Shown here: positions 8,659 to 35,992 of the stretch, piece after piece
Layout of the letters: every line of letters starts with the position of its first letter
How positions within the stretch are numbered: the stretch's first letter is position 1
Assembly: GCA_017556045.1 (NCBI GenBank)
Contig: JAFZFF010000002.1
Coordinates: forward strand, 1-43,054
Source of the DNA: Bacteroidaceae bacterium
GTDB lineage: Bacteria; Bacteroidota; Bacteroidia; Bacteroidales; Bacteroidaceae
Direction: 5' to 3'
Length of the DNA stretch: 43,054 nt
Program-made: the position numbers and the translations under genes
Notes under the pieces: model-generated
The model's database searches: none
What the model was told of the DNA's origin: nothing
The model's input: only the letters and a program-made list of their open reading frames with translations

Positions 8659-8803
8659 GGTATTCAGGTATTCAGTATTCAGTTATTTAAAAGTGGAGAG
8701 GGTACATTGAAAAGAAATTTTATATATATTATAATATATATAACCTATTTTTTTACCTTTTCACTTCGTTTTTATTTAACTGAATACTGAATACCTGAAT
8801 ACC
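8659..8803. repeat. 145-bp palindromic element with TATTCAG-repeat arms
   Basis: Perfect 26-nt inverted arms, 8659-8684 and 8778-8803, each made of three tandem copies of (G)TATTCAG. The interior continues as an imperfect inverted repeat (GTGGAGAGGGTA against GTGAAAAGGTAA on the other strand) to an AT-only centre near 8720-8750. No reading frame inside. It looks like a small non-autonomous (MITE- or REP-like) element; no target duplication is visible. Confidence 0.7.
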
Positions 8804-26496: not shown

Positions 26497-26662
26497 GGTG
26501 AAAAAAGTTTATTTTCGGGGTGGCATGGCAATGCTTCGGAGCAGCAAATGGACAAATCACAATTGACAATTACCTATCGGATGGAAGTTTTCGTTAACGT
26601 TTTCGTTGGTAGCGAGCTCCACTCGCTCTGCCATGCCACCCCAAAAATAAACTTTTGTCACC
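26497..26662. repeat. 166-bp element with 34-nt terminal inverted repeats
   Basis: Arms 26497-26530 and 26629-26662 match at 32 of 34 positions (ends GGTGA, inner side GGGGTGGCATGGCA). The interior holds smaller hairpins (GCTTCGGAGC at 26533-26542; AGCGAG/CTCGCT at 26611-26627) and no gene. MITE-like; no target duplication recognised. Confidence 0.7.
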
Positions 26663-33117: not shown

Positions 33118-33134
33118 AGTGGAATAATTATAAT

Positions 33135-33252
33135 GGGGACCCTCCCTAACCCTCCCTCTAGGGAGGGGACTAGTACATCGCGGAAGATTATAAATGATAT
33201 TCACGATGTCGGTATTGCCCCTCCATAGAGGGAGGGGTTGGGGAGGGTCCCC
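33135..33252. repeat. 118-bp palindromic element between araA and araB
   Basis: Inverted 36-nt arms, 33135-33170 and 33217-33252, both starting from the outside with GGGGACCCTCCC and containing CCCTCCCTCTA; they differ by about two substitutions and one indel. The arms also contain a nested hairpin (CCTCCCTC/GGGAGGGG). Inner bases ACATCG (33175-33180) and CGATGT (33204-33209) extend the fold. It lies 17 nt before araB and 11 nt after araA and would form a very stable stem in the operon mRNA. Confidence 0.8.
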
Positions 33253-33263
33253 TTTTGTTTATA

Positions 33264-34799
33264 TTAGCAAAGTGCCTTGTTCAACATGTAGTACACCTCA
33301 TTCATGCGGAGCTCCTGCTTGAAGCTGCTGATGGTGGTGTTCTTGTTGATCTTGATGTACTCGATGCCTACCATCTCAGCGAAGTCTTCCCAGTACTCCT
33401 CGTTGATGTCGTATGAGAATGCGCTGTGGTGGGTACCGCCTGCAAGGATCCATGCGCCAGCACCGATCTCGAAGGTGGGCTGAGGAATCCAGAGAGCTGA
33501 TGCCACGGGGAGGTTAGGCATAGGCTTGGGCTCGATGCACTCTACCTCCTGTGAGATGAGGCGGAAGCGGTTGCCGAGGTCTACGATGGTAGCCTTGATA
33601 CCGTAGCCGGTCTTAGAGGTAAACACGAGACGTGCGGTCTGCTGCTTGCGGATACCGATGCCGAGGAAGTGTACCTCGAGCTTGGGCTTCTCCTCAACGG
33701 CAATGTCGGGACAAATCTCGAGCATGTGGCTCTGGAGGCATGATGACTGGTTACCAGCGAAGTTGAGGGTGTAGTCCTCGAGGAATGAGCAACCCTTAGG
33801 CATACCCTGCTGGATAACCCAGAGTGTGCGGCAGAGGCAAGCGGTCTTCCAGTCGCCCTCAGCACCGAAACCGATACCTTCGGCCATGAGGCGCTGTGAT
33901 GCGAGGCCGGGAATCTGGTCGAAGCCTACGAAGTTGGGATCGTCGATATCTGCGCCACCGAGGTCATCAAAGTTGGTGGTGAAGGCTGTAGCACCCTCAT
34001 CGGCCAATACGCGACGCAATGCGATCTCTGCCTTAGCAGCATTCTTCACCTTCTGCCAATATACCTCTTCGCCGCTCTCGTCGATCTTGATTTCATACAT
34101 GCTCTTGTACTCCTCAACGAGTGCATCAGCCTCGGCGTCGGTCACCTTCTTGAGATACTCCATGAGTGATGATACGGGGTAGTAGTCAACGTGGTAGCCC
34201 ATGCGCTGCTCAAACTCTACGCGGTCGCCATCGGTAACGGCAACGTTGTTCATGTTCATACCGAACATGAGGCATCGTGTGTTCTTAGCATCTGCAACAC
34301 CAGCTGCTACGCGTGCCCATACGGCAATCTTCTCCTGTGCCTCCTGGCTCTTCCAGTAGCCACAAACTACCTTGCGAGGTACGCGCATGCGAGTGCAGAT
34401 GTGACCGAACTCGATGTCGCCGTGAGCAGACTGGTTGAGGTTCATGAAGTCCATGTCGATGGTCTCCCAGGGAATCTCTGCGTTATACTGTGTGTGGAAG
34501 TGGAGGAGGGGCTTCTGCAAAGTCTGCAATGCCTTGATCCACATCTTAGCGGGTGAGAAGGTATGCATCCATGTGATGACACCTACGCACTTCTCTTCGT
34601 TGTTGGCTGCCTTCATCACGGCATCGGCCTCCTTAGAAGAGTTTGCTGTACCTTTATAAACTACCTTGATAGGGATAATGCCGCTATTATTGAGGCCATC
34701 TACCATCTCTCTTGAGTGACCGTCAACGATTTTTACGGTTTCACCTCCGTAGAGGAGCTGGGCACCTGTGACCCACCAGATTTCATAATTTTCAAACAT
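33264..34799 (-). CDS. araA: L-arabinose isomerase
   Basis: The 511-residue cytosolic enzyme converts L-arabinose to L-ribulose with a divalent metal. ATG 34799 (MFENYEIWWVTGAQLLYGGETV) matches the family start; the TTG at 34808 is less likely. Family blocks seen: EIWWVTGAQLLYG, ITWMHTFSPAKMW, HFHTQYNAEIPW, the substrate loop EGIGFGAEGDWKTA, and SFLEDYTLNF with the catalytic glutamate. Gene order araD-araA-araB is as in other Bacteroidales. The 5' side, which once faced araD, now holds the S23 cassette. Confidence 0.96.
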   Translation of the reverse strand: MFENYEIWWVTGAQLLYGGETVKIVDGHSREMVDGLNNSGIIPIKVVYKGTANSSKEADAVMKAANNEEKCVGVITWMHTFSPAKMWIKALQTLQKPLLHFHTQYNAEIPWETIDMDFMNLNQSAHGDIEFGHICTRMRVPRKVVCGYWKSQEAQEKIAVWARVAAGVADAKNTRCLMFGMNMNNVAVTDGDRVEFEQRMGYHVDYYPVSSLMEYLKKVTDAEADALVEEYKSMYEIKIDESGEEVYWQKVKNAAKAEIALRRVLADEGATAFTTNFDDLGGADIDDPNFVGFDQIPGLASQRLMAEGIGFGAEGDWKTACLCRTLWVIQQGMPKGCSFLEDYTLNFAGNQSSCLQSHMLEICPDIAVEEKPKLEVHFLGIGIRKQQTARLVFTSKTGYGIKATIVDLGNRFRLISQEVECIEPKPMPNLPVASALWIPQPTFEIGAGAWILAGGTHHSAFSYDINEEYWEDFAEMVGIEYIKINKNTTISSFKQELRMNEVYYMLNKALC

Positions 34800-34812: not shown

Positions 34813-34849
34813 AATGGATAATTGAGAATGGATAATTGAGAATTAATAG
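34813..34849 (+). repeat. Left terminal inverted repeat of the cassette
   Basis: Heptads AATGGAT, AATTGAG, AATGGAT, AATTGAG, AATTAAT, then AG, reading inward. Confidence 0.75.
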
Positions 34850-34884
34850 TCTCATCGCTGCACTCTCTTTTATCTCGGTTAATA

Positions 34885-35238
34885 CTAATTGTTCTGTTTT
34901 GAAGTTTTGACTATACTGATTAAAATTTTGAGAATTTCTTCGCAATCTGCAAATATACTGTCATACATCGTGGTTGTAATATATTCAGTTCTATGTAATA
35001 ACTCTAACCAATAACATGTCTCATTAGCCTCTTTCAGTGCAATATTGTTTTTATTCAAGAAATCGGCTTTGCTCTGTGCATGTTCTGCCTCTCTTACATT
35101 TGCTCCGATGCTTGTTCCTGATCTTAATAGTTGTTTGCTTAAGACGAATTCGCTTTGTTCTTTGCACAAATATTTGTACAAGTTTACGATTCTTATAGAG
35201 AACTCTAAAGTCTTATCTATAATAACATTGTCCTTCAT
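34885..35238 (-). CDS. Four-helix-bundle protein (S23/IVP family)
   Basis: The 117-residue protein is of the type first seen as the reading frame inside 23S rRNA intervening sequences and related to the bAvd accessory protein of diversity-generating retroelements. Seen: four amphipathic helices and the family pattern KTLEFSIRIVNLYKYL, LSKQLLRSGTSIGANVREAEHAQSKADFLNKNNIALKEANET, YWLELL. No catalytic residues are known; bAvd-like proteins form basic pentamers that bind nucleic acid. Its ATG is 3 bp inside the right terminal repeat. Its base composition (AT-rich) differs from the ara genes, a sign of transfer. Confidence 0.88.
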   Translation of the reverse strand: MKDNVIIDKTLEFSIRIVNLYKYLCKEQSEFVLSKQLLRSGTSIGANVREAEHAQSKADFLNKNNIALKEANETCYWLELLHRTEYITTTMYDSIFADCEEILKILISIVKTSKQNN

Positions 35239-35240
35239 AA

Positions 35241-35277
35241 CTATTAATTATCAATTCTCCATTATCAATTCTCAATT
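35241..35277 (-). repeat. Right terminal inverted repeat of the cassette
   Basis: On the minus strand, heptads AATTGAG, AATTGAT, AATGGAG, AATTGAT, AATTAAT, then AG, reading inward to the start of the S23 gene. Confidence 0.75.
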
Positions 35278-35290
35278 ACAAAAACTGAGC

Positions 35291-35992
35291 TTAGTGGCTC
35301 TGTTTTTTCTGACCATAGTAAGCATTAGGACCGTGCTTGCGGTTGTAGTGCTTCTCGATGAGGAGTGGGTTCATCGTGGTCTCGGGATTGAGAGTAAATG
35401 AGATGTAGGCCATCTTGGCGCATTGCTCCATCACCTTGGCATTGTATACCGCATTGGCGGGGCTGGTGCCCCATGAGAAGGGACCATGGTTTCTTACCAA
35501 TACACCGGGAGTGTGATCGGGGTTGATACCCTCGAAGCGCTTCACGATGACGTTACCAGTCTCCAGTTCGTACTCACCCTCGACCTCTTCCCTGGTCATA
35601 GCCTCGGTGCAGGGAATCTCCTTGTAGAAGTAGTCGGCATGTGTGGTACCGATGTTGGGGATGTCCTTGCCAGCTTGTGCCCAAGCGGTGGCGTAGGTAG
35701 AGTGGGTGTGTACTACACCTTGTATGTTGGGGAATGCGCGGTAGAGCACGAGGTGGGTAGGTGTATCCGATGAAGGATTGAGGTCTCCCTCTACAACCTT
35801 GCCCGTGTGGAGGTCTACTACTACCATGTCTGATGCCTTCATGTTGTCGTAGTCTACGCCGCTGGGCTTGATGACTACCAATCCCTTTTCGCGGTCGATA
35901 CCCGATACATTACCCCAAGTGAATATCACCAAACCCTGTTTTACAAGGTCAAGGTTGGCTTGGAATACTTTTTGTTTGAGTTCTTCTAACAT
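35291..35992 (-). CDS. araD: L-ribulose-5-phosphate 4-epimerase
   Basis: The 233-residue class II aldolase-fold enzyme makes D-xylulose 5-phosphate, linking arabinose to the pentose phosphate pathway. Seen: TWGNVSGID (25-33), KPSGVDYD (42-49), SSDTPTHL (74-81) with D76, the zinc histidines H95 and H97 ([11 protein letters not shown]), and H169 ([10 protein letters not shown]), which correspond to E. coli AraD D76, H95, H97 and H171. It lies 33 nt after araR. The cassette begins 14 bp after its stop. Confidence 0.96.

What the first reader, a model, noticed from the sequence alone, without database searches (positions are those of the whole stretch)
34813..35277. S23/four-helix-bundle gene as a compact mobile cassette inside the arabinose operon
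A single AT-rich gene is bracketed by 37-nt inverted repeats (32/37 identical), each made of five heptads, and splits araD from araA. Free-standing S23-type genes are common in Bacteroidetes but their mobility is not explained. Here the boundaries are precise enough to define a transposable unit with no transposase. It could be moved by a retroelement or transposase acting in trans, or the protein itself may bind the heptad hairpins.
Basis: partly seen in the sequence, partly recalled or inferred. Interest (0 to 1): 0.75.

Follow-up and report, generated by a model that had tools for sequence, protein, structure and literature searches.

The report
Mobile S23 gene with heptad-repeat ends
A small gene inside a sugar-use operon is bracketed by matching mirror-image seven-base repeats; the same arrangement surrounds many of its relatives across bacterial phyla and was copied together with its gene elsewhere in this genome, so it looks like an unrecognised kind of jumping gene with no known enzyme to move it.

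Summary
In detail: S23 gene 34885-35238(-) lies between araD and araA, bracketed by 39-nt inverted repeats (34/39; inner 37 nt 32/37) built of heptads. It belongs to a large class. Inverted flank scores have median 21 in 31 genus loci against 7 for mispaired flanks; 64 of 78 loci from many phyla score 13 or more. The repeat sequence differs between loci; what is kept is period 7 and the match between both ends. GxxExxY genes show a weaker 9-nt period. In this genome another S23 cassette exists as two copies (20 of 357 nt differ) in two junctions, shared from heptads to heptads; a relative has only one. The korA/korB junction is empty, or holds S23, GxxExxY or a DUF559-like gene, in different species. 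At araD/araA four relatives keep only the right array and the segment after S23, probably a deletion scar; G007 and G008 are empty. Imperfect pairs (G:U 87, A:C 97) give no sign of RNA pairing. Reverse transcriptase and HUH transposase are patchy in the genus and were not found in this genome. A mobile cassette is well supported; the moving enzyme is unknown. Closest known: S23 intervening sequences of 23S rRNA.

The parts
35240..35278 (-). Upstream (5') arm of the cassette: five imperfect heptads, purine-rich on the gene's strand, 12 nt after the araD stop and 1 nt before the S23 start
   Evidence: the repeat finder I1; sequence
34885..35238 (-). S23 / four-helix-bundle protein gene, 117 aa, ATG start, TAG stop
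   Evidence: the ORF listing; PF05635 E 1.9e-29; TIGR02436 E 1.3e-31; solved relative 2RLD at E 5.7e-56, profile search
34851..34884 (-). Segment between the S23 stop and the downstream arm (TATTAACCGAGATAA...), shared with four relatives that lack the gene
   Evidence: alignment and shuffles; one exact copy in the genome
34812..34850 (-). Downstream (3') arm, inverted partner of the upstream arm (34 of 39), 12 nt before the araA start
   Evidence: the repeat finder I1; count
35291..35992 (-). araD, L-ribulose-5-phosphate 4-epimerase: upstream neighbour, same strand
   Evidence: PRK08193 over its cut-off
33264..34799 (-). araA, L-arabinose isomerase: downstream neighbour, same strand (ATG read by eye)
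   Evidence: AraA_N, AraA_central, Arabinose_Iso_C

Best explanation
This is one copy of a widespread transposase-less mobile cassette: one S23 gene between two tandem arrays of ~7-nt units that are reverse complements of each other. Shown by comparison: the arrangement recurs around S23 genes in many phyla; the arms match within a locus but differ between loci; the period is 7; the gene mostly runs in sense with both neighbours in narrow gaps; a cassette has been copied with its arrays to a second junction in this genome, and relatives differ in what the same junction holds. Inferred mechanism: cassette and arms move as one DNA unit. The S23 protein (five chains in each of its two solved relatives, one of them reported as a homopentamer) binds the heptad arms when they are single-stranded or cruciform and helps ordinary host replication or repair enzymes copy the unit into another gap by template switching. 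Recognition would be of the repeated 7-nt hairpin geometry and not of a fixed sequence, which would explain why each locus has its own heptad. Sense orientation inside operons would be kept by selection, because the gene depends on the host operon's transcript and harms it least there. Loss by deletion leaves solo arrays or short gene-less hairpins.
For: Matched arms: 31 genus loci, own-pair inverted score median 21, 930 mispaired pairs median 7 (95th percentile 14), direct own pairs median 8; of 78 loci with flank among 80 fetched from many phyla, 64 score >=13 against 83 of 920 mispaired pairs; background, 4 of 315 ORFs score >=16, one of them the window's S23; 9 of 11 plasmid loci >=13. Period 7: autocorrelation 0.437 at 7 and 0.40 at 14 against 0.25-0.29 elsewhere; background intergenic flat. 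Copying: two S23 copies of this genome differ at 20 of 357 nt and at 1 of 44 nt of the left array, between unrelated flanks; similarity starts in the left heptads and ends where the right array begins; relative G008 has only the fcl-gmd copy and G006 neither. Occupancy: korA/korB read in 18 genomes is empty in 9, S23 in 3, GxxExxY in 5, DUF559-like in 1. Repeated arrivals: at a GHMP-kinase junction two origins are forced by supported branches; ychF/lgt S23 genes lie in two supported clades that also hold genes from other junctions. Orientation: both neighbours co-directional in 26 of 28 and 53 of 72 loci, against 135 of 279 background triplets. DNA rather than RNA: G:U 87 against A:C 97 among 3424 facing bases in 97 loci.
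Against: No direct evidence that S23 binds the arms or that the unit moves. In G008 and G006 the gene after gmd is not the one found in this genome, so their lack of the second copy is not a strict empty site; the two copies lie 1.6 kb apart, so local duplication by ordinary recombination is not excluded; and they belong by sequence to the divergent S23 branch, not the window's. 14 of 78 broad loci score under 13 and both phage loci have no arrays. A strong 7- or 14-nt array was called before the gene in 22 of 31 genus and 52 of 78 broad loci, after it in 20 of 31 and 57 of 80, so not at every locus. A divergent branch (L004, L071, L072, L073, L082) has less regular units by eye. No target-site duplication could be defined. 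Protein similarity and array similarity at different sites correlate only weakly (Spearman 0.16).
Confidence: 0.55

Rival explanations
1. RNA-level element: the arms pair in the operon mRNA, the S23 gene is looped out and RNase III cuts the stem, as in S23-bearing intervening sequences of 23S rRNA. The structure is then kept by selection on RNA.
For: Same protein family, inverted ends and mostly sense orientation; the Coxiella IVS has a 28-bp terminal stem, RNase III processing and heptameric repeats before the ORF (PMC4990558, passages).
Against: Among imperfect pairs sense G:U (87) is no commoner than A:C (97), p 0.51; RNA-level selection should favour G:U. Four of 72 broad loci lie antisense to both neighbours, as do two plasmid copies between cas2 and cas1.
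Confidence: 0.15
2. Moved in trans by a resident reverse transcriptase, with S23 as an Avd-like cofactor: a relative of diversity-generating retroelements that copies the operon transcript.
For: S23 resembles the DGR accessory protein Avd (weak NCBIfam match E 8e-4; PMC10053308 passages); sense orientation.
Against: RVT_1 was found in 5 of 19 genus genomes and not in this one, nor in G001 and G017, which have four S23 matches each. This genome is 78% complete and those 88-89%, so absence is suggestive only.
Confidence: 0.1
3. Passive: heptad tandem repeats arise by polymerase slippage anywhere in intergenic DNA, and S23 genes merely tend to sit there; matching arms come from generic inverted-repeat correction. 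No cassette.
For: Heptads are over-represented in many bacterial genomes and slippage has been proposed (PMC4692102, passages; PMC4679880, passages); arrays exist without S23.
Against: 7 of 179 background intergenic stretches carry such arrays and 4 of 315 ORFs have matched arms >=16, against 56 of 78 broad S23 loci >=16. The arrays were copied along with the gene in the C38 pair.
Confidence: 0.15
4. REP/RAYT-like: the arms are ends for an HUH (Y1) transposase supplied in trans, with S23 as passenger.
For: A gene between inverted short repeats and many orphan repeats in the genome resembles RAYT genes between REPs (recalled, no call).
Against: Y1_Tnp was found in 7 of 19 genus genomes and not in this one; the ends differ in sequence from locus to locus, unlike REPs (recalled).
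Confidence: 0.05

Closest known systems
S23-bearing intervening sequences (IVS) of 23S rRNA, e.g. the 428-nt IVS of Coxiella burnetii (PMC4990558, passages)
   Same: One S23 gene between terminal inverted repeats; similar length; heptameric repeats next to the ORF; a host transcript around it; scattered, horizontally acquired distribution.
   Different: Here the host is a protein operon, not a rRNA helix; the arms are heptad arrays matched on both sides and different at each locus; pairing shows no RNA wobble signature.
Heptameric repeats of Xanthomonas (GGGAATC) and Nostoc (GGGGAYT) (PMC4692102, section on xanthomonads read, other passages)
   Same: 7-nt tandem units, intergenic, mostly between genes running the same way; 70 and 75 convergent inverted pairs in two Xanthomonas genomes.
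   Different: Its authors report no general association with mobile elements, and S23 is not mentioned in the main text. Xanthomonas campestris does encode an S23 protein (2GSC, XCC0516); whether those repeats bracket it could not be checked here.
REP sequences with RAYT (TnpA-REP) genes, and MITEs (recalled)
   Same: Short inverted ends, one gene or none, many orphan copies.
   Different: No HUH or DDE enzyme inside, no shared end sequence, tandem 7-nt ends.
Avd of diversity-generating retroelements
   Same: Related four-helix bundle.
   Different: Only S23 lies between the arms and no reverse transcriptase was found in this genome; the Avd model scores 19.7 against a cut-off of 80.

Membership tests
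S23 / 23S_rRNA_IVP protein family (PF05635, TIGR02436) | Sequence over the curated cut-off | tested here: met
   102.5 bits against 33.8; 109.1 against 24
23S rRNA intervening sequence (IVS) | Lies inside a 23S rRNA gene | tested here: not met
   Lies between araD and araA; no Rfam match in the window at the gathering threshold
23S rRNA intervening sequence (IVS) | S23 ORF bracketed by inverted repeats | tested here: met
23S rRNA intervening sequence (IVS) | Stem cut by RNase III | not testable with these tools
   No transcript data; indirect wobble test is negative
RAYT/REP (IS200-like) element | Y1 HUH transposase gene within the element or in the genome | tested here: not met
   Only S23 lies between the arms; Y1_Tnp not found in this 78%-complete genome, 7 of 19 in the genus
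Diversity-generating retroelement | Reverse transcriptase with the Avd-like gene | tested here: not met
   None found in this 78%-complete genome; Avd model far under cut-off
Insertion sequence or MITE | End sequence shared between copies, with target-site duplication | tested here: inconclusive
   Ends differ between most loci but are shared by the C38 pair; a duplication could not be defined because arrays vary in unit number

The most novel reading that the evidence does not exclude
S23 cassettes are autonomous elements whose own protein recognises the period and hairpin form of 7-nt arrays, not a sequence, and moves them with host enzymes only; GxxExxY (9-nt units) and DUF559-like (G-run ends) cassettes are parallel families of the same kind. 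The unexplained heptameric repeats of many bacterial genomes are then largely the ends and relics of S23 elements, and rRNA intervening sequences are copies that landed in 23S genes.
Probability: 0.35. Interest if true: 0.92.

Novelty: new variant of a known kind. Interest (0 to 1): 0.8.

Why it matters
How S23-bearing intervening sequences move is still described as unclear (PMC4990558, passages), and the excess of heptameric repeats in bacterial genomes has been ascribed only to slippage in the papers seen here (PMC4692102, PMC4679880, passages). If free-standing S23 genes travel with matched heptad ends, both questions become one and can be tested in an ordinary laboratory anaerobe. It would also add a class of mobile element with no known recombinase, whose ends match by period and pairing without sharing a sequence, and which settles inside operons of central metabolism.

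Tried and rejected
Rfam scan of the window: no match. A repeated family for the segment after S23 (TATTAACCGAGATAA): one exact copy in the genome and six places with two mismatches, so not a dispersed repeat. Reading the four array-only araD/araA junctions as virgin target sites: set aside, because they share the post-S23 segment with the window; that S23 entered a pre-existing array is not strictly excluded. Concerted evolution of arms: looked at orthologous sites by eye; one compensatory outer-unit change at korA/korB (L060 against L173), but at araD/araA the down arms of four species are near identical while the up arms vary, so not claimed. All-frame stop codons as the purpose of the arrays: left arms stop all three frames in 64 of 95, but unit-permuted arms do so in about 60%, so explained by period and composition. 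Arrays seeded by the target sequence: unsupported, since the C38 copies share their left array. Sequence specificity of S23 for its heptad: weak correlation only. Obligate reverse transcriptase or HUH transposase in trans. Family survey: AATTGAN arrays and PF05635 go together (31 both, 28 S23 only, 6 arrays only, 56 neither; Fisher p 3.5e-7), but genomes are related and I did not correct for that; the tool's control, the pattern read backwards, is itself a heptad array (AGTTAAN) and outnumbers the pattern in several genomes (for example G017, G035, G123, G125), so it is no clean null. Literature: ten searches (two searches listed 20 of 152 and 20 of 36) listed no paper on heptad-bracketed S23 cassettes; most subscription journals and preprints are not in that library. 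PMC8934634 (passages) mentions a GxxExxY gene beside one reverse transcriptase only.

Full report
WHAT IS THERE. The gene at 34885-35238 (minus strand) encodes a 117-residue S23 / four-helix-bundle protein (PF05635 E 1.9e-29; TIGR02436 E 1.3e-31). It lies between araD and araA, all on one strand. Its two sides are 39-nt inverted repeats, 34 of 39 complementary, each of five imperfect heptads of AATTGAN/AATGGAN type. Spacing is tight: 12 nt from the araD stop to the upstream arm, 1 nt to the S23 start, 34 nt after the S23 stop, 12 nt from the downstream arm to araA (read).

IT IS ONE OF MANY. I scored the best inverted match between the 120 nt before and after each S23 gene. For 31 S23 loci of the genus (31 of the 39 rows, those given loci there or) the median is 21; for 930 mispaired flanks it is 7 with a 95th percentile of 14; the direct-repeat score of true pairs has median 8; in 19 of 31 loci no other locus's downstream flank matches as well. 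Five of the 31 score under 13. Among 315 ORFs of 90 aa or more in twenty 20-kb stretches of three genus genomes plus the window, 4 score 16 or more, one of them the window's own S23. A scan of genome contigs found 590 relatives and kept the best 80, from Bacteroidota, Clostridia, Verrucomicrobia, Lentisphaeria, Sulfurovum, Leptospiraceae, Acidobacteria, Fibrobacter, a cyanobacterium and others. Of the 78 with enough flank the median is 19, 64 score 13 or more and 56 score 16 or more; of 920 mispaired pairs 83 and 42 do. These 80 are the closest relatives of a Bacteroidota alignment, not a random sample of the family. Of 11 loci that I took from 26 plasmid records (two of them near-identical Planktothrix loci), 9 score 13 or more (150-nt flanks) and all have a 7- or 14-nt array on at least one side; the two phage contigs with S23 have none. 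In this genome PF05635 has 8 matches; I placed 7, and 6 of these score 13 or more.

WHAT IS CONSERVED. The arm sequences differ between loci (AATTGAG, GTTAAGA, AGTTCAT, AATTAGG, AATGCAA, AATTCGT and more), while the two arms of a locus match. The autocorrelation of 222 S23 flanks peaks at 7 (0.437) and 14 (0.40), with 0.25-0.29 at other shifts; background intergenic DNA is flat, and 7 of 179 background stretches hold a 7/14-nt array. By the same threshold such an array stands before the gene in 22 of 31 genus and 52 of 78 broad loci, and after it in 20 of 31 and 57 of 80. The arm before the gene has more G than C in 78 of 97 loci and fewer in 14. Both neighbours run with the gene in 26 of 28 genus loci and 53 of 72 broad loci (background 135 of 279 triplets); the gene is antisense to both in 0 and 4. 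A divergent S23 branch (L004, L071, L072, L073, L082) has less regular units by eye.

OTHER CARGO. At araD/araA, genome G016 carries a GxxExxY (PDDEXK_3) gene instead. I took 26 of the 35 PF13366 rows; 23 had enough flank. With 150-nt flanks their inverted scores have median 12 (mispaired 8, 95th percentile 14); 10 of 23 reach 13. Their flank autocorrelation is 0.320 at 9 and 0.322 at 2, lower elsewhere, and a strong 9-nt array was called in 8 of 49 flanks: a 9-nt class is there, but weaker than the heptads of S23. At korA/korB, of 18 genomes where the junction was read, 9 are empty with only a few bases between the genes, 3 have S23, 5 GxxExxY and 1 a DUF559-like nuclease gene (named from its sequence by recall) between GGCCCCCC...GGGGGGCC ends.

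COPYING AND LOSS. Contig C38 of this genome holds two S23 cassettes at the junctions fcl-gmd and gmd-fucP (gene names by recall). From the start codon to the end of the shared block 20 of 357 nt differ, and 1 of the 44 nt before the start codon, which are six heptads; beyond them the flanks are unrelated, and on the other side similarity stops where the right arrays begin. Relative G008 (gmd 94% identical) has S23 at fcl-gmd and none within 1.5 kb after gmd; G006 has none at fcl-gmd nor in the 768 nt held after gmd. The fcl-gmd copy is therefore most simply the older one. But the gene after gmd is a different one in both relatives, so this is not a strict empty site, the copies are 1.6 kb apart, and they belong to the divergent branch. 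At araD/araA none of 13 relatives' junctions with both genes (12 genomes) has S23: 8 have no array, 1 has GxxExxY, and 4 (G002, G012, G014, G018) have the right array preceded by a segment that aligns to the window's sequence from the S23 stop to the array (0 of 500 shuffles reach the score for each; G007 and G008 do not align). By eye the alignment continues into the last S23 codons. The simplest reading is loss of the gene and left arm by deletion. Four other genomes, three of them labelled Prevotella or Prevotellaceae, carry S23 at this junction (L152, L163, L170, L180); that segment of theirs does not clearly align to the window's (6 to 186 of 500 shuffles as high), and their S23 genes form a supported clade (100/100) without the window's, although a single origin is not ruled out. 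At a GHMP-kinase gene in Flavobacteriaceae supported branches force two origins; at ychF/lgt the S23 genes lie in two supported clades that include genes from other junctions, while the tool's own count, which leaves out ungrouped rows, needs only one. The heptad also occurs without the gene: 121 matches to one pattern in this genome against 25 for the pattern read backwards; of the 30 loci read (about 24 distinct places) only the window's holds S23, and some others are short hairpins with 22-37 nt between the arms.

HOW IT MAY WORK. Arms paired in RNA should tolerate G:U. Of 3424 facing bases in 97 loci (of 109 with flank, those scoring 14 or more), 2955 are Watson-Crick, 87 are sense G:U and 97 are sense A:C (binomial p 0.51). 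This speaks against selection on an mRNA stem and for pairing or copying at the DNA level. A reverse transcriptase (PF00078) was found in 5 of 19 genus genomes and a Y1 transposase (PF01797) in 7 of 19, neither in this genome; the genome is 78% complete, so this is suggestive only. The two solved relatives, 2RLD and 2GSC, each have five chains, and the Xanthomonas one is reported as a toroidal homopentamer (PMC4990558, passage). I therefore propose that the S23 ring binds heptad hairpins by their spacing and lets host enzymes copy the unit; every step of that sentence is inference. In 121 genomes of the family, AATTGAN arrays and PF05635 occur together more than chance (31 of 59 against 6 of 62, p 3.5e-7, uncorrected for relatedness); the six exceptions show that arrays can be present where no S23 is found.

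RELATION TO WHAT IS KNOWN. The nearest known thing is the S23 intervening sequence of 23S rRNA: in Coxiella it has a 28-bp terminal stem, RNase III processing and tandem heptamers (GACAGAT) before the ORF (PMC4990558, passages). The present cassette fails the defining feature of an IVS, its place in rRNA. Heptameric repeats with many convergent inverted pairs are described in Xanthomonas (PMC4692102, one section read, other passages) and TAACTGA heptamers in Beggiatoaceae, Cyanobacteria and Bacteroidetes (PMC4679880, passages); 'S23' does not occur in the main text of either. Ten searches of the paper library (named in Tried and rejected) listed nothing on heptad-bracketed S23 cassettes.

Noticed in passing
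window 33132-33152 / 33235-33255: A gene-less GC-rich inverted repeat (CCCTCCC...GGGAGGG) at the next junction of the same operon, between araA and the kinase gene; it resembles the ends of the DUF559-like cassette in G012.
   Followed up: partly
window 8659-8692 / 8770-8803: A gene-less inverted pair with GTATTCA-type heptads and 77 nt between the arms, upstream of a large glycoside hydrolase-like gene (name by recall): looks like a miniature S23-type element.
   Followed up: no
window 26497-26530 / 26629-26662: Another strong inverted pair (CGGGGTGGCATGGCA...TGCCATGCCACCCC) in an intergenic region, of unknown kind.
   Followed up: no
L112-L139 (GxxExxY loci of the genus): Some GxxExxY nuclease genes are flanked by 9-nt repeats (CACGAATNT, CACAGATTN), often also as hairpins on one side: a possible parallel cassette family worth its own study.
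   Followed up: partly
L290, L291: In Nostoc TCL26-01 and Anabaena cylindrica plasmids an S23 gene sits antisense between cas2 and cas1; in Planktothrix plasmids (L293, L294) between a helicase gene (drmD in one) and a gene annotated in one as PglX methyltransferase.
   Followed up: no
L263: In G007 the gmd-fcl junction has a gene-less inverted pair of AGGAGTTC-type arrays with about 60 nt inside, and L258, L261, L262 and L274 have arrays without a gene there (by eye).
   Followed up: no
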